Part shown: piece after piece, positions 7,646 through 61,409 of the stretch
Layout: every line of letters starts with the position of its first letter
Position numbering within the stretch: the first letter of the stretch is position 1
NCBI GenBank assembly: GCA_026075535.2
Contig: AP026549.1
Location: 4,464,001 to 4,528,000, forward strand
Reading direction: 5' to 3'
Length of the DNA stretch: 64,000 nt
Source: Tricholoma matsutake
Taxonomy: Eukaryota > Basidiomycota > Agaricomycetes > Agaricales > Tricholomataceae
The notes under the pieces: generated by a model
Told to the model about the DNA's origin: nothing
Databases searched by the model: none
The model's input: only the letters and a program-made list of their open reading frames with translations
Position numbers and translations under genes: made by a program

Positions 7646-7689
7646 GGGCCCAAATGATGAGCTAGTGGTCGTTTGGGCCCCAAGTATGT
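7646..7689 (+). other. Hairpin abutting an intron-like 5' splice site
   Basis: GGGCCCAAA at 7646-7654 pairs with TTTGGGCCC at 7672-7680. A GTATGT motif starts 4 nt later at 7684. The same arrangement recurs in other hAT elements of the window. Confidence 0.6.
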
Positions 7690-7836
7690 TTTTTATTGTT
7701 CATTTCATCTTTTTTTCTACTAACAATACATTTCTTTTCATTTAGTTTTTTGCATCCCAAGCCCTGCCCCATGCCCCTCCCAATGCTGTACTGATGCCAA
7801 TGCCAGCCAACAGGATAGCAATAACATTGCAAAGTA

Positions 7837-7880
7837 AGCCCAAACAACACTAGTTAGTGTCGTTTGGGCTGTAGGGTATG
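7837..7880 (+). other. Second hairpin plus GTATG motif in the same element
   Basis: AGCCCAAAC pairs with GTTTGGGCT across 7837-7870, and the stem is extended by ACACTA/TAGTGT. GGTATG follows at 7875, then a pyrimidine-rich run with TACTAAC. Confidence 0.6.
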
Positions 7881-8032
7881 TTTTTTATGATTGATTTCCT
7901 GTGTTTACTAACTAACTAACTATTATTTCTTTGTTTTGGGTTCTTGCTTGTTCACAACGATGCCTACCTGTGCCCTACGCCACCACCATGAGCCTCTGCT
8001 CATGGGGCTGCAACGTTGGACAATGATGCCGG

Positions 8033-8178
8033 TGGAGTAGGGTGTGTGGGCACCTACTCCAGTAGTCACATGATCACCTAGCCAGTAGCCACCTGCATGT
8101 ACATAGTCACATCGTGTTTAGGCTATCACTATCAATGTCCCTGCCATAGCTATAGGCAGGAGACTTGCTATGTCTCCA
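8033..8178 (+). repeat. Left LTR (146 bp)
   Basis: This is a direct repeat of 19019-19164 with only a few differences, mostly C/T transitions such as GTCACATG versus GTCATGTG. Confidence 0.7.
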
Positions 8179-8344
8179 TCTTGGTGATGAGAGCATGATT
8201 TGACGCACCCACTGCTTCTTTGGTATATTTTCGGCACTCTAGCTTTTGATTCTCATGAGCCACGTCATAGTGCACCAAATTCTTGTCTACACCTGCTTCT
8301 CATTTTTAGCTCTTGAGTCTCTAGTTTCAGTCCCCAGCCCTAGT

Positions 8345-8432
8345 CTCACAGAACCAGCTCTTGGCTCACAGAACCAGATCCAGTTACCGGAACCACAGAA
8401 CCAGTTACACAGAACCAGCACCAGTCTCTCAG
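8345..8432 (+). repeat. ACAGAACCAG short tandem repeat
   Basis: About six imperfect copies of CACAGAACCAG precede the likely start codon at 8459. Confidence 0.6.
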
Positions 8433-9515
8433 TCTTTCATTCAGTTCTCACACTCAGCATGCCAGGTCCAGAACAGGGCAAACGAAGCAATAAGAAAAAG
8501 TGGCGTGAGAACACGTCTAATTTGAATGTGAATATCACCACCATAAACACTGTAATAATGGCATTGAATGCAACAGCTCCGAGTGTGACCATAGCTACAT
8601 CAACAACATTGCTACCTGATGTAACCACCATAACACCATCCACAAATGAAACAGCACCAAAAACAGCTTTGTATACAGCTCCACTACCTACTACAAGCAT
8701 CAGTACAGCTATGGTCACAACAAGCAACCCAAATGATGCCAGCAACATTGATACAGCCACAGCTGTGTTACCACCAGTTGACTCAACACCTGACACAAGC
8801 TCATTCACTTACAGCCACGAGGAAGTCCGCATACTGTTGGAAGAAGCAAAGCTTGATGGATGGCAGGAAGGATATGAGGAAGGAAGTAAGAAGTTAATGG
8901 AAGGCTCCAGGGATGGATATGAAGCATGACAGAACCTAGACCAGGGGAAGGAAGAACAGGCACGTAGTGAAGGACAGTTAAAGGGGTATGAATTTGGGAA
9001 GGATGAGGAGTGAGCAAAGTGGTTAGCGGAAGGACATGGGCCAGGGATGTGCATATCGGTGCAAGGACACACTGAAGAGACAGAAAAACACATGGAAGAT
9101 GATGCCTCAAAGGAAATGGACACTTGGAAACATGGCTACAGCCACTGTGTATTGATTGAGGAAGGCCATTGCATCGAAGGAGGCCAAAATAACTGCCCAG
9201 AATGACTTCAGCACCCAAACCACTCCCAGTACCACTGAAATGGCCATGCAAACCATTGCTGAACACCCCAATACTCCCATTGATGCTGTTATGTCACTGC
9301 TGATGATGCCAGCACAGCCCCCATCAACATTGACAACATCGTCAACAATGACCACCTTCCCTGCTTCAAACAAGCTCCCAACAGCTCATAAACAACGACA
9401 TTCGCTTCCAGACCTACCTACAGCACTCTACCCAGTTCCCCAGCCCTTCGTCGCACACCCTAAGCTGCCTGTTGCCACTGCCACCTCACAGCCAACAATG
9501 GCAGCCACTTCTGCC

Positions 9516-10500
9516 ACATAGGTAAGCTACATTGTATCGAATGATACGACCTATCGAACACATACATTGTATCGAATGATATGGGTTCGATGGACGCTGT
9601 TGAACTCACTATATAAAGTCACTATACTATATTAACCAATGACTACATTGTACACTGATTATTATACCTTACAATAGACATGCATTAGGAATGTAATACA
9701 GACATTAGTAACATTTGAAATGCAATGGGCACAGACACGGGCACAGACATGGGGACGGCCATGGGGATGGCCATGGGGATGGCCATGGCATCGCCATTGG
9801 GCATGGACACAATATTAACCTATGAATACTATTGACTTTCAATGGATGCCATCAAACTCACTATATATTTGTACATATTCTATTAATTAACCAATGACTA
9901 CATTACTACTTTACTTGCTGTACCATACAGATAGACATGCATTAAGAACATAGTACAGACATTAGTAATGTTTAAAATGCAATTGCAGGGAAGGGGACGG
10001 GGACGGGAATGGGGACAGGAGTGGGGATGGGAGCGGGACGGGAGCAGGGATGGGGACTATTGACTGTACACATTGTATTATCTGTTTCAATGGACGCCGT
10101 CAAACTCACTATATATTTGTACATACTCTATTAATTAATAAATGACTAAATTACTACTTTACTTGCTGTACTGTACAGATAGACGTCCATTAAGAAGATA
10201 GTACAGACATTAGTAATGTTTGAAATGCAATTGCAGGGAAGGGGACGTGGACTGGGATGGAGATGGGGATGGAGACAGGAGTGGGGATGGGGACAGAAAC
10301 AGGAGTGGGGACGGGGACAGAAATGGGAGCGGGGATGGGGACAGAGATGGGAGCAGGGACGGGGACAGAGATGGGAGCAGGGACAGGGACGGGGACAGGA
10401 ATGGGGAAGCAGCACTGACATCGGGGCTTGACAGGACCACAAAACCAATGATATTACTACAATGATGTGCATTAAGAACAGAATACAGACAAAAGCTACA
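9516..10500 (+). repeat. KDZ left subterminal inverted repeat region
   Basis: Blocks such as the ATTAGTAA / TGCATTAGGAATG / TATAGTGAGTT series occur here two to three times and reappear in reverse complement at 17030-17570. Two copies of the palindromic motif GTATC-N4-GATAC type (TTGTATCGAATGATA) lie at about 9531-9585. Confidence 0.75.
10233..10415. repeat. Degenerate hexanucleotide (GGGGAY-type) tandem repeat
   Basis: About 180 bp of GGGGACRGRRAT-like units. Related arrays occur at 9735-9790, 9985-10065 and, reversed, at 17060-17105. They create spurious repetitive open frames on both strands. Confidence 0.8.
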
Positions 10501-10543
10501 TAGATATATATATAATGAGTAAGGTATTAATTATCCTTCCACA

Positions 10544-11207
10544 TCACTGGGAATCGGCAGGGGGATTGGCCATAGCATCTGAGTGGGATGATGGCATAAT
10601 TTCTGAGAACCTCCTTTCAAATGATTTCAACTTATTTTCAACCCTTTCCTTCAAAATGGCATATGTTTTCAATGTTATATCTTGTTGTTTGAGCTTCTCC
10701 ACCTTGGCCATGTACAGACGATGACTGGCATCCTTGTACGATATGCCAAGCTGGTCTTGAAGGGCCTTCACTTCAGCATGGCAGCTCAACAACTCCCTGT
10801 CTGTCAAGTCCTTGTCATTCGCCAGTTGTTCAAAAGCCAGTTTGTTAGTTCCTGGAAATGTGATCAATAATACAACATTGAATGGGATGATACCCCACCT
10901 TGGCATGCATGCGACTCTCCTCTGGATCTATTGGGGTCATCTCAATTGATGCCCAGTAATTAAATATGGTGGGGAGAATGTCAGTCTTGAGTATTTGCAA
11001 TCGGGCAGCTTTTGATTCCTGAGATCAGAATCCATCTTTATAAGGCTCAATGATCTTCCGCTCTTCGACCATATATTGGCTCCCCTTCCAGTACCGTCTG
11101 TGTCCTGGGTTCTCTGATGGCTCAGGTGGCATTGGAGGGGATTGATGTGGAGGAAGGAATTGTTCTTGCCATTGGGTTTCACTTGTCATTTGGCATGAGG
11201 ATAACAT
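10544..11207 (-). pseudogene. KDZ-associated coiled-coil protein gene
   Basis: Transcribed away from the transposase. The start region at about 11189-11207 reads MTSETQWQEQF, then YMVEERKIIEPYKDGF, an in-frame TGA near 11025-11027, SQESKAARLQILKTDIL, and ESRMHAK. A GTGGGG...CCAG intron (about 10906-10858) follows, and the second exon runs LAFEQLANDKDLTDREL to a stop at 10544. The second exon is rich in Lys, Glu and Leu and should form a coiled coil (KVEKLKQQDITLKTYAILKE). The stop replaces an Arg codon context (CGA to TGA), so the gene is probably dead. Its position beside the transposase suggests an accessory role in transposition; no enzymatic motif is visible. Confidence 0.55.
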
Positions 11208-11273
11208 GAGGATAACATGAGGTCAATAGTACAATAAATAGCCCATCAATGCAATTGATTCCCCCCAGTCATC
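11208..11273. promoter_or_regulatory. Shared divergent promoter between the two KDZ genes
   Basis: Only about 66 bp separate the divergent starts. The stretch has a duplicated CATGAGGATAA/CATGAGGTCAA motif and an AATAAATAG run. Its promoter role is inferred from gene orientation. Confidence 0.35.
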
Positions 11274-14200
11274 ATGAGCCTGACAAGAGCTCCTTACAAG
11301 CAAAAGAGACAATCAAAGAACAATGCCACCCTGCGTGAGGACAATGATGGTGCGGTGGATACTGTCACACATAAGGAAGTTGAGGTCAACACGAGACATG
11401 GACCAAAAACAAAGTGTATCAAGGTTCCCTTGCCTCCAGTTACAGAAGAACATGGTGAATCGAGTTCAGCTGGTATCCACGACAATCCAGGTCTTGCTCC
11501 AGAATGGGATATGCAAGAACCTCAGGTGGCCGATGAGCCAGTTCAGCCATGGATCAGCATGGTCAGTTTCTGACATTGATTGACTTACCGAGGCTCATGT
11601 ACAAATAACAGAGGCAGCGAGACTATGTCTTGGAGTTTGTCAGATGAATAGATGAACTGCTGCAAGCATCCCTGTCTCGGCAGGCATGGTCAATTGACAA
11701 ACAAGTTTGCAACCACTGTTCATTCAATAAACCGGCAATTTGGAGATGCGTTGATTGTTTGCTAGGAAGAATGCTTTGCCGAACATGTATGCGGGTAACA
11801 CACAGGCAAAATCCCTTTCATCGCATTGAATCTTGGACTGGCATGCACTTTCGCAGGGCCGAGTTATGGGAGGTTGGCACATACCTCTTAGTTCAGCACC
11901 AGACAGATCAGCCAATTTGCAATGCTCTTCAGTTCCAAATGGATTATCTGGAAACATTTGAGGACATGAAGGATAAAGCAGAACAAGAGTCGGCCAATTG
12001 GGAAGGTGATGATCAGCATCAGCCTTCATCACATCAATCAGCATTGGCCCCATGTGATGAGTCGGGAGTGGCAAGGGCAAGGGCAAGGGCAGATGAAGTG
12101 GGGGACGATGAAGCATTTTTTGATTCCCTTAATGAGCTTCTGATTCAAGCGCACGATACATATGTTGATGATAGCCTACAAGACTTCTTTGATGGCGATG
12201 ATGCACATGAAGTTGAACATGCTGATGAAGACATCCATGGGTTTGATCCATATTTGCCTAATGCTACTGAAACAGCTGAATGCATGAGGACCGATGCTGC
12301 TCCCGCTCCTGATGGCAATGGCGATATTACATTCAGACCACCCACTGCCGATGCCTTGAACAACAGTTACATCCATGTGGTGCATATGAATGGAATACAT
12401 CACTTGGTGATGGTTACCTGCCAGTGTCAAGGGGAGCACAGAATTCCCTTGGACCTAATAAGCAGTAACTTGCTACCCACCAGCTTCAACAAAATATGCA
12501 CTCTTTTCACCATGCATGTCCTGGATCATTTTCGGCTCTGTAATCTGGAATTGAAGGCATCAGCCTACTGATTTTACCAATTGATTCAGCGTGTCACATT
12601 GCCTATGAGGCCTGCAGAAGTGGTCAACCTCTACCACGAGCTTCGGTGCATGTCCCACTTATGGCGTTGGATGAAAAGATTGAAGTGGGCTGGGTATGGT
12701 CACAATCAAAATGATCCATTGAAACCTAAACCAGGATCACTCGCCAACTTCTGTCCAGCTTGTCCTCAAGTAGGCATAAATATACTGGAAAATTGGAAGG
12801 ACAATGAGAACCGGTGGGTGATTAAACACCTGCTTTGTGCAGTGGTCTCTGAAATGATATTACATTTTAGATTTGTTTTTAAATGTGTATTTGTGGCCGA
12901 TGGCAATTTCAAAGCTGACCATGTTCAGCAGAGAAACTCTGATACTGATATATGGCTATGGGATGGAGCTGGGATGGCCCCAAATCAGGCTGAATACAAG
13001 CAGTTTCTCCAAGATGCCATAGAACGATTAACAGTAAGTACACTTCCCTCGCTGCTGCCACTGCCATTGCCACTGCCGTTCCTGTGGCTGTGGCTGTGGC
13101 CATACCCGTGCCCACTCCCGATCTGATCTGATCTGATCCATGCCCCTTTTGCAGAAGGCACCTTGCGAAAATAAATTCCTAGCCATTGTGAATGCTTTTC
13201 TGGCATCGAAGGCATGTGATAGGACTGGAGTAGCTGCCATTGCATGTGCGTGACATGGATGTTATGCACCCAATGCATTGGTAGACTTGTTCTGGGGAGA
13301 ACAGCAAAAGAACATTGACTTTGCTTTCCTTCAAGCACTGAAGACTACCAGGGTTGACCCTCAACAGGGAGTAATGCTGATTTACGACATTGTCTGCCAG
13401 TACATCATCTACCTTCTGGAGCGCATTGGTCCACATCTTCCAGCTGACCTCACCATTGACCAGGCCATTGGGCTTATGCATGTACATGGTCACAAGGACG
13501 AATGCTTTTTTCGCTATGCTCCATCTTTCATTCCAGGCTCTGGCATCATAGCAGGAGAAATACTAGAGTCCCTGTGGTCATCACTGAATTCCATTTCCCC
13601 AACAGTCAGGACAGTGACCTTGCCACATCAGGCAGAAATGCTTGATGATCATGCTACGGACTCAAATCACAAGAAAATGCTTGGCATGACTGCTATGCTG
13701 TGTGCAAAATCTCAAGAAGCCCTTGAGATCTCCATGCAACTCGGCAAGCACCATGCTGACCTTACAGCAGCATTTGGTCAACAGGCAGTCCAAAGATGGG
13801 AGGATGAAGTGACTGCAGCAGAATCACTCAGGCTGACAGATGTTAAGGCCATGGATATCTACGCCACTCGGGGATCGGGAGTGGGAGTGGGAATGGCATC
13901 GGCATCAGCACCGGCACCGGCACCAGTTCAATCTGTGGTTGAGGAGTGGATTGATTTCACAATCATCGTTCAACAAATTCAGTAAGTACTGCCTAACATA
14001 CTCATATATCACAACCCATTGTTGGCGTACACCAGGATTGAATTATGAGACAAAGTCTGCTGAATTGGTACATCACCAAATGTTTCTGACATGCAATATG
14101 TTGAAAGGGAAAGGGAAGCTCTCGCATCCCACATGGAAACCTTAACAGATTTACAAAATGCTGCCAATGTTGCTGACCATGACATTGCTCCATCACAAAT

Positions 14201-15144
14201 CAGCCATTACAATGTTGACAACTCTGATGACTTAGACCCTTCAGATGAAGACACACCTACAGCATCGGGGCCTTCACATCTTCCAGCTGACAGAAATGCT
14301 ATTTCAGTTGAGGAGCAACAAGTATACCTCCCATTTAATGGCCCTCTGGCAGAGGTGGAGATTCAGCTCAGGAAGAATCAGGCAAGCCGACTGCTGCATC
14401 GGCTGCGGGAGCTCATTGTGGACAAGTCATTTCAATATTCACACATTATTCAAGCGGCCCCAAGAGAGGTAGTTCGCACACGAGCATGAGCCACTGTCCA
14501 GGAGTTGGTTAACAAAATTGCCCTGCATTCCCGAATGTATAACCATTGCCGAAGCAGATTGGTGGCACTGGATTGTGACACTGACACCTTAAATATGTTT
14601 CAGCAGTTAAAAAAGGATGACCTCAATGCTAGCACAGCTATTCTGAACCCGAATATGCCAGGCTCCACTAATATTTGTCTGTCCTGGATTTGGCATAATT
14701 CTCACATTTGGACTGGTGTTACTGACTTCCCTGATGCTGCTGCTGTACCCACTCCCACTCCCAGTCTCATTCCCGATCCCGCTTCCTTTAATGGCCCCGC
14801 TCCCAATCCCACTGATCAATTCTGGGAATGTACATCTATTTTGTGGCTACTCATTTGCATTGCACTGAACTTCTTGGATAGTCAGGCGAGTACATTGGCT
14901 TTGCTCGCGGGCTCAGAGACATAGATGGAAGGAGGAATTTCTGCTGGTCACATATGAAATGCAGTGGCCTGTGCAGTATTTCATTTATCACAGTGAACAG
15001 TGGCAGTCAGCCTTGCACTCAGAGAATACCTTGCCTGGCCCTCTAGCCTCTGCTAACTGTCAGTGGGCTTTATGGCATGAATTAGCATTCAGGGCTGACA
15101 CTGCATTTACATCAGCAAACGTTGATTACATCTCCCCTCTATGA
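11274..15144 (+). pseudogene. KDZ-family transposase with N-terminal Cys cluster
   Basis: ATG at 11274. A CxxC-rich cluster lies at about 11708-11825 (CNHC, CVDC, CRTC, then His residues), the KDZ-linked CxC2-type zinc motif. VTCQCQGEHRIPLDLI is near 12420 and FCPACPQVGINI near 12750. Catalytic-core blocks are VADGNFKADH (12893), GVMLIYDIVCQYII (13370), HKDECFFRYAPSF (13490) and AGEILESLWSSLNS (13555), matching the D, D, E acidic set. The C-terminal KDZ blocks are LVNKIALHSRMYNHC (14505), STAILNPNMPGS (14630) and a tail ending at 15144. Introns are at 13031-13154 and others. In-frame TGA codons (for example in ACA*HGCY near 13250, where relatives have Arg) and frameshifts mean this copy is inactive. 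It would cut and paste the surrounding element. Confidence 0.85.
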
Positions 15145-15192
15145 CCCTCTATTATGTAAACTTGATCATCTTGATCTCTAACCACAATCAAC

Positions 15193-15522
15193 ATGTCAAA
15201 TAAATGTCTCTCAGTCTTCAACCCTTTTTCTTTACAATCGGGGCTGAAAGGTTCACTCCAAATGCGTACACAGCAGATCATTTGGTATGCAGAGTCCCAT
15301 TTCCATCAAGTCCTGTTGCACATGCAAGGGGCAAATGTCTTAAAGCAAAAATGGATGCAAAAGGTTCTGTATTGTGAGCTTGTAAGCAGGATCTTTTATG
15401 AATCAAGTAAGATTCGTCACTCAAAAATATTGCATCTGTGCATCATGTCTCAAATCGGCTTTGCCATATCAATGGGCCTGGTGTTTGAGGTGCCAATCCT
15501 GCTTCATTCCTTGCTGAGGTAA
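15193..15522 (+). CDS. Small ORF, possible 5' exon of KDZ accessory gene
   Basis: A 109-codon open frame just downstream of the transposase (FNPFSLQSGLKGSLQM...). It may be spliced to the 15567 ORF, because GAGGTAAAC at its end resembles a donor and the next ORF is open upstream of its ATG (HLPLRFHPSLLAM). No family was recognised. Confidence 0.35.
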   Translation: MSNKCLSVFNPFSLQSGLKGSLQMRTQQIIWYAESHFHQVLLHMQGANVLKQKWMQKVLYCELVSRIFYESSKIRHSKILHLCIMSQIGFAISMGLVFEVPILLHSLLR

Positions 15523-15566
15523 ACTTTGACCACCTACCACTCAGATTCCATCCATCCCTCTTGGCC

Positions 15567-16982
15567 ATGTTGGATGATGGTGTCCCCCCCAAACTTACAA
15601 GCAGTCTAGTGCCCTCATATGCCCTGGATTGGTGGAGACATCATAGTGAATTGGCAGCGGACAGCATTATGGGCATCGACACCCTGGATCAGTGCCTTGA
15701 TCACCATAAGCAGTACTTCACTGAGTCTGACTCACCCGCTCCCGCTTCCCAGGCCGTTGCCACTCCCACTGCTGATGGCCAATCCTGCATCAAACTCCAG
15801 GGTCTCTTGAATGATATGCTGCATGAAATGCGCAGTACACTTCAGTTTATAGACAGCTGCAAATCATCAGCAGATGCTGTGTTGAATGCCAATGTCAGGA
15901 AAGCAGCAGCGTTACACCGAGTTCATGAGCTTGCCCTGCTCAAGGAGCTCCAGGCTGCACCACAGGCTTTGGCAACGGGATCAAAACCCCCTCAACGCGC
16001 TGGGCAACCTTCAAGGCAAACAGCAGTAAGAAGAAAATCGGAACTGGTGGCAGCAAATGCACAGGCAGAACTTGAGCGCCTGAAGTCCCTTCCCCCCAGC
16101 TCCTACAAGTGGACCTGGGGTGTCAACATCACAGAAAGTGATGTTTTGGGTGCTAATGAGAAGACCAAGAGCAAGGGCAAACAACAGCATTCTGGGTATC
16201 AGTTGTCTCTGCCTGATGGTGCAAAGGGAAGAAAGGTGTGGTCAAGCACACCAACGGTCTCAACAGTTGCATCCAATGCCTATGATCGACCACCCACAGT
16301 ATCAGGTGATGGAGCAGACAATTCATTGCCTCCCAGTGCCGCTCCTCCTCCCACTCCCACTCCCGCTCCCGTTCCTGATGCTCCCGTCCCCGATGCCTTG
16401 CCCGATGCAGAAGCTGGCCAGCCCACTGCCATGGTTTGGCAAGGCCAAGATGATGCATCAAGTGCAGATCAGCCCACTGCCTTTCAGGCAGCCATGGCAT
16501 GGCAAGGCAAAGACAATGCATCAAGTGATGCTGATCAGCCCACTGCCTTTCAGGCACTCATGGCATGGCAGGGTGACAATGATCAGTCATCATCTTCCCC
16601 TACAGGTTCCCTGACTGCCTTTGATGCTGCACCCTTTTATCTTTCCGATTCTACCTCCTCGTCTCCAGCCACCAATCCAACTTCAACAGATGCAGCTGCT
16701 TTCCCCACTGCATCTGATGCTGCAGATGCTTTTCTGTCATCCTTAGAGACTGGATCTAATGGTGAATCTGATGCCGAGGCCGATTCTGAAGATTCCATTA
16801 CCACATCACAGATAGAGAACCCCACTCCTTCTCATATCACTTTGCTGACCTACCCTCCTGCAGACTTCACTTTGCCGATCTACACTCCTGCAGACTTCAG
16901 TTATGTCAATGAGACTTGGTTGTCTAGCCCTGATGAGATGATGATGGACACTGACATTGAATTATGCATCATGTATATATAG
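15567..16982 (+). CDS. KDZ accessory protein of unknown function, intact ORF
   Basis: Uninterrupted for about 470 codons, unlike every other long gene in the transposon blocks. The N-terminal third has ALDWWRHHSELAADSIM and an Ala/Leu/Arg-rich helical stretch (AALHRVHELALLKEL). The middle has RRKSELVAANAQAEL and SYKWTWGVNITESD. A Pro-rich linker (near residues 255-280) leads to three copies of a DQPTAFQA-MAWQGKDNAS type repeat. The tail is Ser/Asp/Glu-rich and acidic, ending MMMDTDIELCIMYI. It lies inside the KDZ ends and on the transposase strand. The acidic tail and basic N-terminal half could suit a DNA- or chromatin-associated partner, but this is only inference. ATG 15567 was chosen as the first ATG. 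Confidence 0.6.
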   Translation: MLDDGVPPKLTSSLVPSYALDWWRHHSELAADSIMGIDTLDQCLDHHKQYFTESDSPAPASQAVATPTADGQSCIKLQGLLNDMLHEMRSTLQFIDSCKSSADAVLNANVRKAAALHRVHELALLKELQAAPQALATGSKPPQRAGQPSRQTAVRRKSELVAANAQAELERLKSLPPSSYKWTWGVNITESDVLGANEKTKSKGKQQHSGYQLSLPDGAKGRKVWSSTPTVSTVASNAYDRPPTVSGDGADNSLPPSAAPPPTPTPAPVPDAPVPDALPDAEAGQPTAMVWQGQDDASSADQPTAFQAAMAWQGKDNASSDADQPTAFQALMAWQGDNDQSSSSPTGSLTAFDAAPFYLSDSTSSSPATNPTSTDAAAFPTASDAADAFLSSLETGSNGESDAEADSEDSITTSQIENPTPSHITLLTYPPADFTLPIYTPADFSYVNETWLSSPDEMMMDTDIELCIMYI

Positions 16983-17029
16983 TGTTGTGGGTAGTAGTAC
17001 ATTGTACATAGTAAATATCATTGTTTTTG

Positions 17030-17860
17030 TGGTCCTGTCAAGCTCCGATGTCAGTGCCGCTTCCCAGTCCCATCCCTGGTCCCATCCCAGTCCCCTTCCC
17101 TGCAATTGCATTTCAAACATTACTAATGTCTGTACTATGTTCTTAATGCATGTCTATCTGTACGGTACAGCAAGTAAAGTAGTAATGTAGTCATTGGTTA
17201 ATTAATAGAGTATGTACAAATATATAGTGAGTTCGACGGCGTCCATTGAAAGTCAATAGTATTCATAGGTTAATATTGTGTCCGTGCCCAATGGCGATGC
17301 CGTGTCTGTGGCCACGTCTGTGCCCATTGCATTTCAAATGTTACTAATGTCTGTATTACATTCCTAATGCATGTCTATTGTAAGGTATAATAATCAGTGT
17401 ACAATGTAGTCGTTGGTTAATATAGTATAGTGACTTTATATAGTGAGTTCGACAGCATCCATTGAACCCGTATCATTTGATACAATGTATGTGTTTGATA
17501 GGTTGTATCATTCGATACAATGTATATGTTTGATAGGTCATATCATTCGATACAATGTATGTCAGAAATTTCCGGATGGCATTATAACCTCACCCAGATT
17601 ATATGTGGATTATCACTCCCTCTCAGCTAGTATACTGGGCCCTAATGTGGAAAATCTATTACCTACATATGTAAACTACATTATTGAACTGAACCCGAGA
17701 CTTGGTAGCTAGCTTAACATCAGTTCTGAGTGTCAATTTTAATGGGTTATGGCGGTTACGTGGGTCACGTGGGTCATATTAGGTTATACTGCATTACATA
17801 ATTTTGTGACATATGCGTTTGATAGGCCATATCATTCGATACAATGTAGCTTACCTATGT
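17030..17860 (-). repeat. KDZ right subterminal inverted repeat region
   Basis: Mirror image of 9516-10500. Four copies of TATCATTCGATACAATGTA (or one-base variants) lie at about 17470, 17505, 17540 and 17830. About 250 bp of unrelated AT-rich sequence (17570-17815) separates the last copy from the others. Confidence 0.75.
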
Positions 17861-19018
17861 GCTTCTGCCCCAAATGCCTCCAAAACAACCGCTATGGCCA
17901 CAGCTAGCACCCAGACGACCACTGACACCTTGGAGATCATTAACCTGGCTGTAAACGACGTACACGAACTGTCTATGGCTGAGGAAACAAATTTGCAAGA
18001 TGACGAACAGCTGCATTCATCAAAACACATTGTCTCCTCAACAAATGACTCCTGCCAGCTCCACCGCCTCCAATGACAACCTGCACCACCTCTCATACCA
18101 CCAACACCTCAGAAATGGAGGCACTCACTCCCAAACCAATCTATAGCACCACAGCAACATCCCCAGCCCCTTCCCTCGTGTCCTGAGCCCACCACTGCTG
18201 CCACATCATCCGGGACACCACCTGCACCTCACACCGCTGACTCGACACCACTGACAACACTGTCTGCACCCACAAAAGCTACCCATTCACCCCACACCCA
18301 CTGTACACAGCCCATCCGCCCCACCCTGCCCCAGCTCACCCATAAACGAGCTGTTTTGGCCCCTTCTGCTCCCTCCACAGCTGCTGGTACATCTGAGCCC
18401 CCTGCAAACATTGTTCTATGGCCCCCATCTCTTGTCCCACCCCCTTTGAGCCCTGTACCACTGAGTTCGAAACCTGCACTTACATGTTTCGACTGGGCTG
18501 ACGAGGCCATGTCATTTCCTATTACTCCTAGCACACAGCTGCGAGACCTCTCGGGTCTGAAAACAAGCCATACACAGCTGTTTGGGACTCTACGATGATG
18601 GACTCTATGACGACGACCCCCCATGCAGTATTTCTCATCTTGAAATTTTTTTAATCCAGCCTTGCCTTCTCTTGTTCTACCTCAACCTTTCATTACTCGA
18701 TGACACCCCTCCAGTATAGGCCCAGGCAAGCCCACCATCATAGTGCCCTTTGGAGGAGCACCCACACCTGCACCAGTACCTCCAGTTCCAGTACTTGACT
18801 GGGATCGAGACCCCCATCTCCTCAATTTGAGTCAGGCACTTCGAGCTTTGGGATGGATGCCCCCATGTTGAGTCTTTTACTACTATATTTTTCATATCAT
18901 GCATAGAATTTTCTGGTTACATTGTTTATATTATTCCTATACCTATTGTTTTGTTTTTAGCTTTTTTTGTTTTCTTTCTGTGGCGATGGGGACGTCGCCT
19001 TTTTTGGAGGTGGGCAGA

Positions 19019-19164
19019 TGGAGTAGGGTGTGTGGGCACCTACTCCAGTAGTCATGTGATCACCTAGCCAGTAGCCACCTGCATGTACATAGTCATGTCA
19101 TGTTTAGGCTATCACTATCACTGTCCCTGCCATAGCTATAGGCAGGAGACTTGCTACATCTCCA
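19019..19164 (+). repeat. Right LTR (146 bp)
   Basis: Partner of 8033-8178. Confidence 0.7.
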
Positions 19165-20611
19165 CTGGGATGCCATGTCACACAGTGCCACCACCCCGCC
19201 TGTGAGCCACTGCTCATAGGAGCAATGGAGGTGCTGATGACAAACAGTGCCACATCAACATGGCCCCAGAGGGATAACAAATGACAACACACACGGGGAG
19301 GGTCAATGAATGAAAGGGGGAAGTCAACAAACGATAGCAAAAATGGGGAGGATGGTGATGAACAACAGGGAGGGGATGACAAATGTCAATGCAAGGGCGA
19401 CAAACAGCAATGTGAGGGCGATGAATAATAATGCAGAGACGACAACACAAGGATGGCAGATGACAATGCAAGGATGACAAATGACAACACAGGGGTGAAG
19501 TGAATGCAGGGTACAATGAACAATGAGGCTGACAACAATGAATACTGGGGATGACATATGATGCCCCACTCTCGCTACAAATGCGAGACAGTGGGGGCTT
19601 TCTTTTTCTTTCTTTTTTTGTTAGGTCTTTTTTTCTTTTTTCTTTCTATTAGCAACTGCCCCCACCACTGCAAGCACCTGCTCACAGGGTGATGTAATTA
19701 GTTTCAATAAGTATATAATAGAATCTATTTAGACTGTAAAAATAGTAGTAAAATGGGTTGAAACTGGTCTTTTGGGGCAACTGAACCAAATAGGACCAAT
19801 CCTATTCGGTTCGGTTGCAGTCCTCCAAGTTTGGGCAATGGTTTGGACTGGTTGTGGTCCAGGTTTGCCCTCTTGGGGGTCAAAAAACTGGACCAAACTG
19901 GACCTTAAAACACTACAAGTGCATATGCTATCATAAGGCCACATCCATGCAGGCCAGGCTATGATAACACTGGGGTTAGCAGCCTTGCAATAGGGAGGAT
20001 TAGGAAGGACACACCAGGTAATCTCCCCCAGCAAGCAGTGCCACAAGCATGAGGGCATCCTTGTTCAACCCCAAGCTGGCCACATCATCAGCTTGATACG
20101 TGTGCACGCTTTCAGTTTTGCTAAATTTGTCACCACTGCAAACAACTGTCAGAAGGCATGAAGAATGTTTTTTGTTTCACTCACAGGCGTAAAATGGTTG
20201 TCACACCAAACACAACAGCATCTGAGTCTTTGGTGATGATAGCATCCACAAGATGCAGCTTTGAGAGCACCACAAGCTCTCACCAGGTGCCTGCCATGCT
20301 GTAAGCCAGGTAGAGACCATGATAGTGCAGGGAACATACATCTACCCAGGGGAACCCTAAATGGTCAAGCATCTCCTTCATTGCCATGGTGATCCAGTGG
20401 TGGTTCCCTTGAACTCACTTTCCTTGCTTCTTGTTTGGTCGCTTCTGTCCATCAAAAATGAAGACTGGATATATTGGCAACCAGAGCAGGTGGCAGCAGC
20501 ATGCAAACAGTGTTGCCTGCTCGGGGCTCTTGGTATTGCTATGATGATAGCATGCAGCATAAATCCAACCACTGGTCATCATTGTGAGCTTCCCACTACC
20601 ACAATAGTCCA

Positions 20612-21972
20612 TAGTGTTTCAAGGTCCAGTCTATAGGACTGAAAATAATTATAGGACCAAACTGGACCAAACCTCGGTCCGGTCTCTTTTTTGGTTGTGG
20701 TTGCCCATATTTGGGGTCATTCTGGTTGCTGGTTGCCTCATTTTGAAGATTTTTGAAGACTGTTTGAAGAACAGTTGCAATCAGTTGCAACTGGTCTTCT
20801 TACAGTATATAAAATATTAATGTGTACTCAAAAAACAGTCACTACAAGACAATAAATTAATGTAGATACTAATTAATATTTTCTATTTCTACCATTATAT
20901 AATGAAATGGGACATGCCCAGGGGAAAAGTGTTCATTTGGTGGATTATATAGCCTGTAGCTGCACATGGACCTGTTGGTCATGTGCACTGCCAAAAAAAC
21001 AAAGTGGTACCACTTTGCCAAATGGTTCCCACAACCACCAATGACCCACAACACTGCTTCCCCCACTCTCAGGCTTCTGTCCACCCACACACAACACAAC
21101 ACTTACTGCAACTACCTCAACAACTCCACCACAGCTGACAGGACAGACAGGGGGCCCAAATGACATGACACTAGTTGTTATTTGGGCCCAGAGGTATGTT
21201 GTTCATTTTTCTTTTTTTGTACTAACCAATTTATCTTATTTTTTAGAATCTTACTTCTTGCCATTACCATACCCTACCAAAGCCCTATGCCACCACTGTG
21301 AGCCTCTGCTCGCAGGGTGGTAACAGGTCCATTTCTGGATGACAATGCAACAACAACAGTGGCTGATGACAACGCCGCCATGCTGCGCCCAACACCATGT
21401 CACACAGCACCACCACCCCACCTGCAAGCCACTGCTTGTAGGAGGAGATGGTGGTGCCGACAAGGATGGAAGCATGAACAGGGGACAACACAAATGAATG
21501 ACAAATGCAGGGGCAATGAGTCACCAGGATGCCAATCAGCAGGGGACAACAAATGCGAGAATGATGAATGCTCAGATGATGAACATGGGAACGATGAATT
21601 TGGGAATGACAAATGTGGGAACGATGAACACAGGAATGATGAATGCAGGAACAATGAATGGCAGTGACAACTGGTGGGGACAATGACTGGCAGGGACAAC
21701 ACACCAGGTGGAGGATGAATGGTGGGGGTGATGAACAGTGGGGACAAGACAACAACAGCAGCCGCCCCACCCTCGCTACAAACGCAAGATGGTGGGGTGT
21801 GTTTTTTTCTTTCTAATTCTCTTTTATTTTCATTCTCTTAGTAACATCCCACCACTGCGAGCAATTGCTTGCAGGGTGTAAAGGTAATTAGTTTTATATA
21901 ATAGAATTTAGTTACAAAATCAGTGGTATGACTGGATGAAACTGGTCTTTTGGGGGCAACCAAACTGAATTA
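20612..21972 (+). mobile_element. hAT non-autonomous element, 3' end lost
   Basis: It starts TAGTGTTTCAAGGTCCAGTC at 20612, preceded by ATAGTCCA. It has the usual interior: TATATA-like box at 20946, hairpin 21152-21189, an intron-like unit 21194-21246 (GTATGT, TACTAAC, AG), a CTGTGAGC-GCTCGCAG hairpin near 21300 and a CCCCACCCTCGC hairpin near 21768. The 3' terminal repeat is missing. Sequence jumps to TTAGTCCA at 21973-21980, one base off the left flank, so the 3' end was deleted after insertion. It interrupts an intron of the XPG-like gene. Confidence 0.8.
21152..21246 (+). other. Hairpin followed by a complete intron-like unit
   Basis: The stem is GGGCCCAAA (21152-21160) with TTTGGGCCC (21181-21189). 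A 53-bp unit 21194-21246 then begins GTATGT, carries TACTAAC at 21220-21226 and ends TTTTAG. This is one of the clearest splice-like units in the hAT elements. Confidence 0.6.
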
Positions 21973-27115: not shown

Positions 27116-30100
27116 ATTCCCCCATTCGCATTGTTGTCTGCTGTCCTCCTGTTCATCCCTCATTGTGTTGCTGTCTGTCATCTCCCCGGTTTGTGTTGTC
27201 ATTCTGCACTGAGGTTTGTAGTGGCCCCCACCCCCGTTGTTGTTCATAGCTGCTTGTTCAGTTGTATGCCATTGTTGTTGGTGGTGCCACATCATCATGG
27301 TCGGCTGCCATTGTTGCATTGTCATAGTCCAGAAATGGGACCTGTTGCCACCCTGCGAGCAGAGGCTCACAGCGGCAGCATAGGGTGGGGGCTAGGTGTT
27401 GGCTGTGGTCATCATTGTGGTCCAGAAACAAGCCCATTGACACTCTGCAAGCAGCAGCTCACAGCGGCAACATAGGGCTTGGGTGTGGATGGGCAACATT
27501 GTAATCAAACAGCCAGAACCTAATAATGAAGAAAGATTAGTTAGTTAGGTAGTAAAGAAAAAAAAAAAGTATAAAAAAACATACCATAGGGCCCAAACAA
27601 TGCAAGTTCGTTGTTTGGGCTGCCTGCTTTGTGTTCATTCATTAGCGATGCTTTGGGGGGTGGTGGGTGAATGTTGCTTGTGGGTTGTGCTCATGGGAGT
27701 TGTTGGTTGTTGTGGGAGTCAACTGGCAAATGGTGCCACCTTTTTTTTTTGTGAGCACAAATGTGACCCCATGGTCTGTGCACAGCCACAGGGTATATAA
27801 GCACCCACCAAACCACTGCATTTTCCCCCAGGCTTCTCCTTCTGCACGTAAATACAAGTATAATAGTATACATAGTTATAATCAGTACTTATATTCATAC
27901 CTTTTTATTACTGTACATGTACATTTTAGCATATATATTGTAGGGACTACCATGGATGCATCTGGGTAAATATCCATGGATGGTGGATAAATTCTTGTGG
28001 ATATGGATGATATCCATGGATTATCCACATCATCCACAAAACTGATAAGTGAACTTTTTGCCAAAAGGTTGTTGTAATATGCACTGTTGATGTGTAACTA
28101 CTAGTATACAACTAATAGTTATGTGTTTGAAGTACCTATCACTGAGGAAAAGGCAAATTTAGTGTTTCAATGCATTTTTGGATATTACCAAGAGAAATTG
28201 AATGTTACTGATTCAATTGGGCATGTAAAATCATGAAAATATTTGAGTAGGTGCTTACAAGACTTATGTATTGGACTATATAATTTATTGTTGGGATTTA
28301 TTTATTTATTCCTTGAAAATAGCCTAAAGATCATTTTATATAGAGTTACACCAATGTGGTATAGTATTTTGAGATTTTCTTATCAAATATTGCACAAAAT
28401 TAAGAATTTATTTTTCTCTCTTTAAACACCCTTACTGGTATAATATGCACAAAAATTTTCAGAAATTTTAAACATATAAAAGACAAATGAATATTGCATA
28501 TACAAAAGCATGAGAGCTGGTCATCAGAAATGCAAAAAAACAAATACCATGGCAACTGTTACAAATTCAATATCACAAAAAAATCTGGCTTCTTCATCTG
28601 AGTCCTCTTCATCATCTGTCTCAGCTTCTTTCTCACCTGCCCTTGTCCTATTCTCACCTCGCATCTGCTTCTCAACAATCTTGATGGTCTCTGAAAGTCC
28701 TGGGTACAATGGAGTTTTTGCCCAGGATCCAATGGCAACCTGAGCCTTGGATGTTTGTGGACTAGTGTTATGCTGAAGATGGTTAACCTCAAGCCTCCCA
28801 ACAGAAAATGCATGCTCTGCATCAACAGAAGATGCTATACAAAAGGTTTAGTAAAGATAAAAATAAAAACAGTGAAAGTCACCTGGTGCAGAGCAAAAGT
28901 CAAGTCCCATCTTTGACACCCGAGGACGATGCTGAGTAGCTCAATCCCAATACTTCATAACTCCCCCAGCCTCTTTAACAGCAGAAGACTTGATAACTGG
29001 GTCAGTCAAATATGTACTGATTGTGTCAGGGTCTTGAGAATCATCAAGGTCCTGTGTTCTAACCCACTTTGACTTCATCTAAAATAAAAGCATTGTTATT
29101 TAAACTCAGAGTCACAATGGAGTCACTTACCTTGCCTCTTCAAGAAGCTTCAGTGGCTGGGGGAGGTTCTTCATCTCCCTTGTAAGTTTCATTCCAACAA
29201 GTGACAACCAACTTCTTGATATCTCAGATCTGTGCAGCAGAGCAGCCATGATCTTTGAACCACTTGAGTTTCTTGTCAGGGCACATGACTGAATAATATT
29301 AGCCTAGACCAGAGAAAAAAAAAAGTACTAACCTATAGCAATTGTGTATAGCTCACAGTCCTTCATGAGACAGTAGTATTTGTCAATCAGAAGAAGGACT
29401 GCTTGAGCTGCAACATGGACAACATTTGGCAACTCCATGTCTTCATCATCACAAACAAGGGACATTGATTGTTCAATGGAGTCCAGCATAGGTAAGACAT
29501 CTGCAATAAGAGGAACCTGAGATTGTGAAAACAGTTTTGTTGGTTCTTCAAAAATCTGTCACAAAATTAAAATCAGTTATTTGCTTATGAAAGACAAGTA
29601 TTATAACCTCAAGTATGGCACTTAGCATCTCAGCAAGATTCCACTGCTCTTCTGAAAGTCAGTAAGCTTGTAGCTTATTGACAGCAGCCCCAGTGAGTTG
29701 TTCAACAGGACTTCTGAAGTATAGGTGAGCATCTAAGCATGTGAGATCTGAATTCCATCAAGTAGGAACACAGCGATCAAGTGCTGTCTTGTCTCCAGGA
29801 AGGTCCTTGTCATTTGAAACAAGAGTGTCGAACTTCTCCTTCAGTGTTGAACTGTCATGAACATGTCGAGCAAGACCAGCAACCTAATACACAAAATTAA
29901 AGTCATACAAGTCAATTATGACACAAAAATGTTATGCATACTCGGGGGAGAAGCTGAAGTGCCATTTTGTTCTCCTCTTCATTACACCCTTAGCTCTCAT
30001 TTTCTCAATGGCCTTATCACGAGTAGTTCTGACAACAGCTGAATCATGAGCATCCCTACCATCATCTGGCACAGCAGCAGCATCTGTTGCAACACCTTCC

Positions 30101-38025: not shown

Positions 38026-39614
38026 TAGTGTTCAAGGGTCCAGTCCATAAGACTGGAAAAAGACCGGACCCTTAACTGAACTTAACCGCAAGAGACCGAA
38101 CCATCAGTTGTGGTTGACCCTATGTGGGAGTCAGTTTGGTTGTCAGTTGATAGAAAACCAGTTGAAACCAGTCTTAACTGGTCTTTCACACATGTTTATA
38201 CTAGTAGATATATAGTGTTAATCAAGTACGAGATACAGAAATAAGTATATAAAAGAACAAAATATAAATGTTATTTTTACTATTTATAGTATATGTACAT
38301 AAAGTAGGACAAGCTTGGGGGAAAGTGGTCATTTGGGTGGGTGCTTATATACCCTGTGGTAGCACACAGACCATGTGGTCATGTTTGTGTTCCCAAAAAC
38401 AAAAGTGGCACCATTTGCCTGATGACTTCCCATGACCACAACAACAACATCAACAACACCGCATCATCACTCTGTCCACAATAACAACCATGCAAACCAA
38501 CAAACACAATGCAGGCAGCCCAAGTCCATTGTTTGGGCAGGGTACATTCTTTTTATTCATTTATTATTACTTCTACTAGATGTTTTTTACTTTCTTTTAG
38601 GTTCTATTCTTTTGTTAACAACGCATAAACAACGCCAACAGGAACAACGCCACCAACACCAACGGGGGTGACACACCACCCTCTCTGTGCCCCACCCCTC
38701 CATTGACACACATGCCACCCAGCTTGGAATCTCTCACCACCATGAACAAACAAACACAAAGCACCCAAATGACGACTAGCATCATTTGGGCCCCTGGTAT
38801 GTCTTTTACTATTGATTATTATTATTTTTACTGACCAACTTGATTTTTTTCAGGTTTGATAACAATGACAACACCACCATCCCTACGTCACCCCTGCAAG
38901 CCACCACCCACCCTATGCTGCCACTGCAAGCCTCTGCTTGCAAGGTGGCAACAGGTCCCCCATGCCACGTCACACAGCACTACCACCCCACCTGCAAGCC
39001 ACTGCTCATAGGGGGCAATGGAGGTGCTGACAATGAACAGCGCCATGTCAACCTGGCCCAGTGGGATGACAAACGACAATGCACACAGGGAGGGGCCAAC
39101 AAACAACAGGGAGAAGACAATGAATGACAAAGAAAATGGGGAGGGTGGCGACAAATGACAGAGAGGGAACGATGAACAACAATGCAGGGAAGACAACAAA
39201 TGACAATGCAGGGACAATGCAAACAGGGGATACAACGAATGACGAGGCCGACAGCAACGTGTACCAGGGAATGATGTATGATGCACTCTCGCTACAAATG
39301 CAAGACTGTGGGGCATTTCTTTCTTTTTCTCATTATTCTTTTTCTATTAGCAACATCCCACCGCTGCGAGCACCTGCTCGCAGGGTGATGTAATTAGTTT
39401 TATTAAGTATGTAATTTAATTTAATTAGACAGTAAAAAATGGTAGTAAAACTGGTCCAAACCGGTCTTTTGGGGTCAACCAAACCAAATAGGACTGGTCC
39501 TATTCAGTTCAGTTGCAGTCTATTTAATCTGGGCATCAATGTGGACTGGTTTTGGTCTCCAGTTGACCCCCTTGGGGGTCAAAAAACTGGACCGAACTGG
39601 ACCCTTAAACACTA
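38026..39614 (+). mobile_element. hAT non-autonomous element (1589 bp)
   Basis: Ends are TAGTGTTCAAGGGTCCAG and its complement, with a perfect duplication AATGCACA (38018-38025 and 39615-39622). It has a TATATA box at 38346, two hairpin/splice modules (38516-38540 and 38764-38803) and hairpins near 38923-38950, 39288-39316 and 39358-39384. It splits the DDE transposase just after the second catalytic Asp motif FDNAT. Confidence 0.92.
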
Positions 39615-49160: not shown

Positions 49161-49163
49161 GAC

Positions 49164-59300: not shown

Positions 59301-59533
59301 CCCTATGGATTGATAACCAATCTGCACTTTCAGTTGCTAAAAATCCAGACCATCATGGGAGAGTTAAGCACCTTGATCTAAGATTCTACTGGCTTCACAA
59401 CGAAGTCAAGAAAGGAATTATCTGGGTTGAACACATCCCAACAGACAAGAATCCAGCAGATGTCTTTACAAAAGCTCTTAGCTGTCCAAGAACTTTGGAC
59501 ATGCTTGCACTACTTGGACTACAGGTTCCTTAA
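53373..59533 (+). pseudogene. Copia Gag-Pol polyprotein, decayed
   Basis: ATG at 53373 (MTHGFDASKKHFDDL). Gag ends with a zinc knuckle CTWCLHTGHTEDNC (54055). The protease site DTG is kept (54270), but its usual A-S-S neighbours are replaced. The integrase zinc part LWHWHCGHLSADNIH..CEPCISGK lies at 54700-54830. The integrase core has HIYSDLKGPL and FQDDEGGEYI; the segment with the catalytic Glu is deleted at about 55160, where GIQQ is followed by a stop and LLAESKLPPSFWW. Reverse transcriptase has ISSAFLNGELDN (56530), SLYGLKQAGCEWHK (56642) and a FLDDMTIAAK active site (56795). RNase H has HCDADHGGNPDNG, then TTEAEYVVAVSAGQE and LWIDNQSALSVAKNP after the hAT insertion. Stop codons such as SIE*YKARLVA and ALK*LLCYLKG replace Arg codons. 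Confidence 0.88.
57429..59190 (-). mobile_element. hAT non-autonomous element, TAGGGTRTAGCA family
   Basis: Ends are TAGGGTGTAGCATGGG (57429) and the complement ending CTATACCCTA (59190), with a perfect 8-bp duplication TTTGTTAT (57421-57428 and 59191-59198). Hairpins are CCTCCCTC/GAGGGAGG (57776-57801), CACCAAGAGACA/TGTCTCTTGGT-type 57941-57966 beside a minus-strand donor-like site, and GAGCAGTTGCTC at 58032 and 58410. Its ends differ from the TAGTGTTT family but the hairpin module is shared. It interrupts the RNase H part of the Copia element. Confidence 0.9.
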
Positions 59534-59568
59534 TCTTTTTTTCTATTATTACTATCTAGACTTATCTT

Positions 59569-59580
59569 GTTGAGGGGGAG
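59569..59580 (+). other. Copia polypurine tract
   Basis: GTTGAGGGGGAG lies immediately before the right LTR. Confidence 0.75.
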
Positions 59581-59764
59581 TGTTGCTTTTCAGATACAAC
59601 ACAACAATTCTAGATACAGTATTACATAATCTACATACATAGGCCTGAGACGAGGGTCAAAGTTCTTCTAACTTTGACCATTGATTCTCAGGTGAGTAGC
59701 ATACATTACATTACAAATTAACTTTGACCATTGATTCTCAGTTCCTTCCTTTGCATTGCATTAG
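59581..59764 (+). repeat. Copia right LTR with 45-bp internal duplication
   Basis: It is like the left LTR, but AACTTTGACCATTGATTCTCAG occurs twice with a short spacer between. Confidence 0.85.
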
Positions 59765-59888
59765 TGAAGGTAGAAAGAGCATGGGAGATGGAAGGTCTTA
59801 TGGCATGGAAGAAGGAGCAGGAGGAAGAGAGAGCAAGGGAGGAAAACTTGTCACAGGTTGGGAGACATACAGTCGAATAGCACAGGGT

Positions 59889-61409
59889 TAGTGTTCAAGG
59901 GTCCAGTCTATAAGACCGGAAAAAGACTGGACCCTTAACCAAACTTAACTGCAAGAGACCGAACTGTCGGTCTCAGTTCACCCTATATTGGGATTGGTTT
60001 GGTTGTTGGTTGATCACTTTCATAAACTCACAAAAACTGATGTAAGACTGGTTGAAACCGGTCTTTTAGCCATGTTTATACTACTAGATATATAGCATAA
60101 GTTCAGTACAAAATACAGAAATAAGTATCTAAAAGACCAAAATATAAATACTACTATTACTATTTAAGTTATATTTACATAGAGTGGGACAAGCCAGCGT
60201 AAAAGGAGTTGTTTGGGTGGGTACTTATATACCATGTGGTCATGTTTGTGCTCACAAAAACAAAAGTGGCACCATATGCCTGAAGACTTCCCACGACACA
60301 ACAACAACATCGACAATGCTGTGTCATCACCCTGGTCTGCAACCACGACCATGCAAACCAACAAACACAAAGCAGGGGGCCCAAATGATGAACTACCGTT
60401 GTTTGGGCCCCTAGGGTATGTTTTTAAAGTTCACTTCTTCTTTCTTTTACTAACTACTTGTTTTTCTTCATTATTAGGTTTTTGCATTTTGATAATGACA
60501 CTGCCCACCCACCAAATGATGCACACAACCCCGGCGCTGCCACTGCAAGCCTCTGCTCACAGGGTGGCAACAGGCCCTTTCCTGGATGACAATGACTGCT
60601 GACAACAAATAGCGGGGACAACAAGGACAACGAATCAGGGGGACAAGGACAAATCAGGGGGGGGCAATGAGGATGAATCAGGGGGGTCTGCTGCAGACAG
60701 CCCAGATGACGCCAGTCGTTGTTTGGGCTGTTGAGTATGTTTTTTTTTGTTTAATCTTATTTCTTTTACTAACGATGTCACCTAACCACCATGCAACACA
60801 CCTGGGCCCTCGCCATACACCACCCATGCCCTATGTCACCGCTGCGAGCCTCTGCTCACAGGGTGGCAATGGGTACCACCACTTCCAGACAGCAACAGCA
60901 ATGGCAGCCAGGGACAATGGCCGACACCACATCAGAGCACCACCAACCCACCTATGAGCCACTGCTTGTAGGGGGTAATGGAGGTGCCGATGACAAACAA
61001 TGTACACAGGTAGGGGCTGACAAATGACAGGGAGCACAAAACAGACAACAACGAGAACAGGGGAGGTGGCAACATGCGACGGGGAGGAGACGACAAATGA
61101 CAACCACTCTTGACCCCCCACCATCGCTACAAATGTGAGACGGTGGGGCTATTTTATTATTATTTCATTTTCTTTCAGTCTTTTAGCAACACCACTGTGA
61201 GCAACTGCTCGCAGGGTGTAAATATAATTAGTTTTATCTATGATATATTATAATTTAGTTAGACTTGTAAAAACAGCCCGAAGACCAGTTCAAACTGGTC
61301 TTTTCGGTTGCAGTCTTGCAACTTTGGATGTCAGTTTGGACCAGTTCCGGTCCACAGTTGACCCCCCTTGTGGTAAAAAAACTGGACCAAACCAGACCCT
61401 TAAACACTA
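59889..61409 (+). mobile_element. hAT non-autonomous element (1521 bp)
   Basis: Ends are TAGTGTTCAAGGGTCCAGTC and its complement, with a perfect duplication CACAGGGT (59881-59888 and 61410-61417). It is closely similar to 38026-39614. It has a TATATA box at 60227, hairpin 60377-60410 with intron-like unit 60416-60477 (TACTAAC at 60448), a second hairpin 60698-60731 with GTATGT, then CTGCGAGC/GCTCACAG and CCCACCATCGC/GACGGTGGGG hairpins. Confidence 0.92.
60377..60477 (+). other. Hairpin followed by a complete intron-like unit
   Basis: GGGCCCAAA (60377-60385) pairs with TTTGGGCCC (60402-60410). The unit 60416-60477 starts GTATG, has TACTAAC at 60448-60454 and ends ATTAG. Confidence 0.6.

What the first reader, a model, noticed from the sequence alone, without database searches (positions are those of the whole stretch)
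7646..60731. Splice-site-linked hairpin module shared by several hAT families
At least thirteen hairpins of GGGCCCAAA..TTTGGGCCC or GGCCCAAGAGA..TCTCTTGGGCC type lie within 0-8 nt of a GTATGT/GTAAGT-like site, usually followed by TACTAAC and AG at intron-like distance (examples 7646, 7837, 21152, 27591, 31529, 31971, 34424, 34849, 35219, 35711, 38764, 60377, 60698). They occur in elements with three different terminal repeats. Stems differ by paired changes: AAACAAC/GTTGTTT, AAGAGA/TCTCTT, AAGAAA/TTTCTT and AGGAGA/TCTCCT. A TATATA box precedes the module in most copies. This suggests a conserved spliced, structured non-coding transcript, or a DNA hairpin that controls splicing or transposition.
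Basis: partly seen in the sequence, partly recalled or inferred. Interest (0 to 1): 0.87.

Follow-up and report, generated by a model that had tools for sequence, protein, structure and literature searches.

The report
Hairpin-before-intron cassette in fungal transposons
In the matsutake mushroom, well over a thousand copies of transposon-borne DNA carry a small hairpin sitting a few letters before a near-perfect intron start, which suggests that these elements make spliced, structured non-coding RNAs, although no RNA has been measured here.

Summary
All 13 named hairpins exist; 12 are followed within 0-8 nt, on one strand, by GTATGT/GTAAGT. It holds 1,786 perfect GGGCCCAAA..TTTGGGCCC and 443 AAGAGA-type hairpins; in samples, 29 of 30 and 25 of 26 have a donor-like site (up to 1 mismatch) within 0-8 nt. 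The arms flank a loop at -24..-19 from the donor. Carriers whose ends were found are non-autonomous hAT-type elements with 8-bp target duplications and no long sense ORF. Of nine end pairs picked by spacing, the five long ones with matching duplications carry the cassette; one long pair without them and three short ones do not, so it is not needed in cis for transposition. Stem changes: mostly CpG decay, without covariation or G-U bias; two-sided classes AAGAGA and AGGAGA exist, but one core pair shows only one-sided changes. Best reading: a spliced, hairpin-bearing non-coding RNA cassette. Transcription, splicing and function are inferred.

The parts
5657..19915 (+). hAT-type element with 8-bp target duplication CAAGTGCA on both sides (paired by eye from the end list), holding modules 7646 and 7837; interrupted by a nested hAT-type insertion (6000-7459) and by a KDZ-transposase-bearing region (about 9528-17524)
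   Evidence: Ends and flanking octamers; inverted repeats; KDZ/CxC2
7646..7680 (+). hairpin, 3 nt before GTATGT at 7684; intron-like 7684-7745
7837..7870 (+). hairpin, 5 nt before GTATGT at 7876; branch-like TACTAAC present, no acceptor AG
21152..21189 (+). hairpin with 10-nt loop, 4 nt before GTATGT at 21194; intron-like 21194-21246; element left end at 20612, right end not found
27591..27620 (-). hairpin, 6 nt before GTATGT (starting at 27584 on the - strand)
31529..31561 (+). hairpin of AAGAAA/TTTCTT type followed directly by GTATGTAAGT
31971..32001 (+). hairpin of AAGAGA/TCTCTT type, 4 nt before GTAAGT at 32006
34425..34457 (-). hairpin of AAGAGA type; donor degraded (GTTTAT)
34848..34880 (-). 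hairpin of AAGAGA type, 4 nt before GTATGT (34843 on the - strand)
35219..35249 (-). hairpin of AGGAGA/TCTCCT type, followed by GTAGGTATGT
35713..35739 (-). degenerate hairpin, 1 nt before GTAAGT (35711 on the - strand)
38026..39614 (+). complete 1,589-bp non-autonomous hAT-type element, target duplication AATGCACA, holding module 38764
38764..38790 (+). hairpin, 6 nt before GTATGT at 38797
59889..61409 (+). complete 1,521-bp non-autonomous hAT-type element, target duplication CACAGGGT, holding modules 60377 and 60698
60377..60410 (+). hairpin; GTATGT at 60416; intron-like 60416-60477
60698..60731 (+). hairpin, followed by GTATGT at 60735; no acceptor found

Best explanation
The feature is a gene cassette for a spliced non-coding RNA, carried at least in large part by non-autonomous hAT-type DNA transposons of Tricholoma matsutake. 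SHOWN by sequence: in most sampled copies a TATA box, then a hairpin that usually ends 2-6 nt before a consensus donor, a T-rich intron of about 60 nt with branch and acceptor signals, a downstream region that in about half of the cases holds a second GAGC..GCTC palindrome, and no long sense ORF. INFERRED: RNA polymerase II transcribes it and the spliceosome removes the intron. The hairpin folds at the end of the exon just outside the stretch that U1 must pair with, so that exon sequence cannot occlude the donor; the intron supports RNA accumulation, as introns do in other basidiomycetes. What the mature RNA does for the element is not known; I think it most likely a cargo kept from a larger autonomous element.
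For: Donor-like site (up to 1 mismatch) within 0-8 nt of 29 of 30 GGG-type hairpins (19 exact) in 24 loci taken from the listing without regard to flanks, one of them for its array; at the control distance 20-28 nt 6 of 30 (0 exact). AAGAGA type: 25 of 26 (19 exact), control 0 of 26. Whole-genome exact count with GTRWGT at 2-6 nt: 1,165, against about 17 by my own chance estimate from 1,786 hairpins. The gap was 2-6 nt in all 86 distinct hairpins listed although 0-10 was allowed. Strong intron signals: 63 of 71 have a hairpin score of 9 or more just upstream, control 80 nt upstream 4 of 71; 74 of 82 non-redundant ones have mean pairing over 0.6 at -42..-5, against 4 at -100..-61. Element-first test: 5 of 5 long elements with matching target duplications have the hairpin with a donor of at most 1 mismatch (7 hairpins). 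TATA box in 22 of 30. An intron-like site in transposase loci L085 and L087 has no such hairpin, by eye. Intron dependence of expression in basidiomycetes: starts of abstracts of PMC3744415, PMC4935854 and PMC8379801 in the listing.
Against: No RNA evidence of any kind was available. Single copies show no selection on pairing: CpG-site states of the two arms are independent and G-U equals A-C. One core pair has 76 one-sided changes of one type and no two-sided one. Most loci were fetched because they carry the hairpin, so the intron-first counts are biased upward; searches are the unbiased ones and are small. Two window copies lack an acceptor. Sense ORFs exceed the 95% shuffle level slightly in 3 of 12 elements, and antisense frames run to 233 codons.
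Confidence: 0.5

Rival explanations
1. The hairpin excludes the exon junction complex. After splicing, this complex is placed 20-24 nt upstream of a junction; the hairpin covers that place, so the non-coding RNA escapes the complex and what follows from it, such as decay or localisation.
For: Arms at -36..-25 and -18..-7 with the loop at -24..-19; deposition at 20-24 nt upstream (passages of PMC4509934); Mago nashi, a core subunit, has two exon-like matches at one locus.
Against: The place itself falls on the single-stranded loop, so exclusion is not obvious. Only one subunit was searched, and nothing about function was tested.
Confidence: 0.15
2. The cassette is an inherited relic: an ancestral intron-bearing sequence with a palindrome at its exon end was copied with the transposons and has no present role.
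For: Copies decay neutrally at CpG sites with no sign of pair maintenance; one-sided changes at a core pair are tolerated and occur in many copies.
Against: Arms, donor, branch and acceptor persist across copies whose loops, gaps, exons and intron interiors differ; two-sided changed classes exist.
Confidence: 0.2
3. The inverted repeat is a DNA site bound by a dimeric protein (transposase or regulator), and its position beside a donor is inherited.
For: The arm sequence itself is conserved, not only its palindromy; the palindrome is flipped in 4 of 35 cases of one loop class, so DNA-level dynamics exist; pairing shows no strand bias.
Against: Short elements with the same ends and perfect duplications lack it, 3 of 3; it is internal and keeps a few nucleotides from a donor in one orientation.
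Confidence: 0.1
4. The hairpin is a small-RNA precursor.
For: Stable hairpins; T. matsutake has dcl2 and qde2 genes according to a passage of PMC6980582.
Against: Stems of about 13-18 pairs are short for known Dicer substrates (recalled, no call); does not explain the donor link.
Confidence: 0.05

Closest known systems
Non-autonomous hAT elements (large MITE-like elements)
   Same: 8-bp target duplications, TAG-starting terminal inverted repeats, no transposase
Introners (transposon-borne introns)
   Same: DNA transposons that carry splice signals in very many copies
   Different: In introners the transposon carries a splice site at one end and becomes the intron (passages of PMC12403724); here the intron is about 60 nt and wholly internal
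oskar SOLE element
   Same: A stem-loop at an exon junction, linked to splicing and the exon junction complex
   Different: SOLE is built from both exons (18 nt of exon 1, 10 nt of exon 2; passages of PMC4509934); this hairpin lies in the upstream exon alone and sits in transposons
Hypoxylaceae/Xylariaceae stwintrons with near-terminal inverted repeats
   Same: Fungal, multiplied introns with short inverted repeats
   Different: Their repeats are inside the intron near its termini (passages of PMC12403724); here the repeat is exonic

Membership tests
hAT superfamily, non-autonomous | 8-bp target site duplication | tested here: met
   Window 38026-39614, 59889-61409, 5657-19915 exact; elements in fetched loci exact or with one mismatch. 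For many sampled hairpin loci, AAGAGA types included, the element ends were not determined
hAT superfamily, non-autonomous | terminal inverted repeats beginning TAG/CAG | tested here: met
   TAGTGTTTnAAGGTCCrGTy, 2,164 exact ends in the genome; same proviso about loci without known ends
hAT superfamily, non-autonomous | mobilised by a hAT transposase with matching ends | tested here: inconclusive
   151 Dimer_Tnp_hAT matches, 150 of 449 candidates scored; none of 12 transposase loci of about 3.2 kb nor two of 9.9 kb shows these ends
Introner | the inserted element itself is (nearly) the intron | tested here: not met
   Intron about 60 nt and internal; first donor 518-582 nt from the 5' end in 10 of 12 complete elements, 772 and 1238 in the others
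Conserved structured RNA | base-pair covariation beyond CpG decay | tested here: inconclusive
   None at CpG pairs and 76 one-sided against 0 two-sided at one core pair; two-sided classes AAGAGA (443 places) and AGGAGA; 13 window copies exceed shuffles
Spliced transcript | spliced reads at the predicted junctions | not testable with these tools
   No RNA data held
Known Rfam RNA family | covariance-model match | tested here: not met
   0 matches at gathering score in the window

The most novel reading that the evidence does not exclude
Non-autonomous DNA transposons of a mushroom have spread over two thousand copies of a structured non-coding RNA gene whose exon ends are built as hairpins over the exon-junction-complex site, a selfish RNA design that decouples splicing from the marks that splicing normally leaves.
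Probability: 0.12. Interest if true: 0.85.

Novelty: new variant of a known kind. Interest (0 to 1): 0.55.

Why it matters
DNA transposons are not known to need RNA of their own non-coding copies to move (recalled knowledge), so a promoter-like box, intron and exon-end hairpin kept in long elements asks what the RNA is for. It also gives hundreds of natural variants of a structure at fixed distance from a donor site, a ready library for asking how RNA structure affects donor choice and exon junction complex placement.

Tried and rejected
Rejected: coding exons. In 12 module-bearing elements, spliced in the script, the longest sense ORFs are 51-112 codons; 9 lie within the 95% level of base shuffles and 3 slightly above it. 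Antisense frames are longer, up to 233 codons, and exceed that same level in 7 of 12, but the shuffles were scored on the sense strand only, so this is not a proper antisense control. One further row of that output, window_22101_-, is a short element without the module. Rejected: a DNA hairpin needed in cis for transposition. Rejected: CpG-type paired changes as covariation. The apparent G-U excess in the 13 window copies is not repeated by the 156 oriented genome copies. A first pairing profile gave values above 1 from a normalisation fault and was redone. Orienting the discordant hairpins by their loop word was abandoned when one search showed that loops can be flipped. Transposase locus L092 gave a convergent antisense intron-like signal without this hairpin; L093 has hairpin modules downstream of the transposase that match L047 and L040 and that I read as a separate insertion; no autonomous partner was found. 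Prokaryote genomes: 0 matches to the pattern with GTAAGT. The literature searches showed no earlier description; they cover only the held library, and I saw their listings and the passages, no whole paper.

Full report
WHERE IT IS. The window is G000:C12:4464001-4528000 of a genome of 161,040,721 bases in 13 contigs. That total is the one printed for the Tricholoma matsutake telomere-to-telomere assembly in PMC10211490 (passages seen). The organism name is therefore inferred from the exact size; the window's KDZ/CxC2 and copia-type genes fit a basidiomycete.

OBSERVATION. The 13 named hairpins are all there. Twelve have GTATGT or GTAAGT within 0-8 nt, eight on the + and four on the - strand, and the donor at 34424 is degraded. 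A further hairpin of the same type lies at 57937-57966, between the LTR-like repeats of a copia-type element. The two motifs exceed shuffled expectation about tenfold. A scan for strong introns that ignores hairpins found 9 in the window, 7 with the hairpin. With relaxed signals, 40-53 kb gave 0 hairpins in 15 sites and 31-36 kb gave 3 in 9.

GENOME-WIDE LINK. Perfect GGGCCCAAA..TTTGGGCCC hairpins number 1,786 and AAGAGA-type hairpins 443; both patterns are their own reverse complement, so each place is listed on both strands. With exact GTATGT at 0-10 nt there are 216 places, and with exact GTRWGT at 2-6 nt 1,165 (loop limits 6-22 instead of 8-20). I took 24 places from the listing, four given by the tool and twenty chosen by me without looking at flanks, one of them for its array: 30 hairpins, 19 with an exact donor and 29 with one of at most 1 mismatch within 0-8 nt, 1 on both sides; the control distance gave 0 exact and 6 with a mismatch. 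For the AAGAGA type, 25 loci: 26 hairpins, 19 exact, 25 with at most 1 mismatch, 1 on both sides, control 0. In the 86 distinct hairpins listed the gap was never 0-1 or 7-10 although these were allowed.

ANATOMY. Among the loci then held, ten module-bearing elements could be delimited at both ends, and two in the window; for most other loci the ends were not determined. Complete elements have 8-bp target duplications, exact or with one mismatch, TAGTGTTTnAAGGTCC-like ends and lengths of 1.36-2.9 kb, or 3.8 and 14 kb when nested. In sense order most show a TATA box, usually 155-206 nt before the hairpin, the hairpin, the donor, a T-rich intron (median 61 nt, T 57%), a CTAAC-like branch site and an acceptor. 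A second palindrome GAGC..GCTC lies within 150 nt after the acceptor in 42 of 82 introns and within 150 nt before the donor in 7 of 82. Some loci hold tandem exon-intron units of about 135-160 nt, each with its hairpin. Predicted pairing averaged over 82 non-redundant introns peaks at -36..-25 and -18..-7 with a minimum at -24..-19, while shuffled exons stay near 0.5. The 82 were picked by intron signals, but mostly in loci fetched for their hairpins.

AN ELEMENT-FIRST TEST. From the terminal-repeat listing I took nine end pairs by spacing: L099 and L100-L107. Six span over 1.3 kb. Five of these have matching target duplications (two with one mismatch), and all five have the hairpin followed by a donor of at most 1 mismatch within 7 nt of TTTGGG (7 hairpins, 3 exact GTATGT). 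The sixth, L103, has unrelated flanking octamers and no hairpin, so it is probably not one element. The three short elements (443, 797 and 827 bp) have perfect duplications and no hairpin. The cassette is therefore typical of long elements and not needed for movement in cis. L098 was fetched because it spans a hairpin array and is not part of this test.

STEM CHANGES. PMC6980582 reports CpG C-to-T hypermutation in this genome (passages). In 156 distinct oriented hairpins, 10 of them set aside for other states, left and right CpG states are independent (chi-square p 0.54); 46 hairpins carry G-U and 45 carry A-C at these pairs. These changes are decay, not covariation. At core pair 6, 88 places are one-sided, 76 of them of the AAGY type by my count of the list, and no AAGY..RCTT place exists. 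Yet AAGAGA (443 places) and AGGAGA are changed on both arms: forward and reverse counts are 59 and 62, and of the 100 rows listed 3 are one-sided. In fetched loci with a donor, pair 6 is A-T in 110, G-C in 36, G-T in 1 and A-C in 1, but many of the G-C copies were fetched as perfect palindromes. In the 13 window copies 93.6% of cells pair against 85.2% shuffled, and 21 cells are changed on both sides against 9.1; those copies were chosen by eye and are related. Concerted change of both arms at the founding of a subfamily fits selection on pairing, but also arm-to-arm copying in a DNA palindrome, and 4 of 35 hairpins of one loop class are flipped.

MECHANISM. What is shown is anatomy. Transcription, splicing and any role of the hairpin are inferred. 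The hairpin stops just short of the nucleotides that U1 reads (recalled knowledge), so I hold most likely that it keeps the exon end folded and the donor free in an RNA whose intron aids its accumulation. The coincidence of the loop with the place of the exon junction complex is a measured position and an untested idea.

LIMITS. No RNA data, no second species, and mostly hairpin-selected loci. The autonomous partner was not found. hAT transposase matches are many (151). Twelve loci of about 3.2 kb and two of 9.9 kb show no TAGTGTTTnAAGGTCC-like ends. L093 does hold hairpin modules downstream of its transposase; they match L047 and L040 and I read them as a separate insertion.

Noticed in passing
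window 53136-59667: Copia-type element: 87-nt direct repeats 99% identical at both ends, LTR-like and probably recent; an AAGAGA-type hairpin lies inside it.
   Followed up: no
window 9528-17524: KDZ transposase region (CxC2 and KDZ domains) between long inverted repeats, nested in a hAT-type element.
   Followed up: no
L092, - strand, around 8922: Downstream of a hAT transposase domain a convergent antisense intron-like signal without the hairpin, followed by a GAGC..GCTC palindrome.
   Followed up: partly
L016 and other hairpins of the AGAT-loop class: The hairpin loop is flipped relative to the donor in 4 of 35 cases, as if the palindrome had inverted.
   Followed up: partly
L059, L016, L034: Tandem exon-intron units of about 150-160 nt, each with its own hairpin and donor-like site.
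   Followed up: partly
window 441-1549, 25935-26378, 40583-41397: Inverted-repeat (foldback or MITE-like) elements with arms 89-98% complementary.
   Followed up: no
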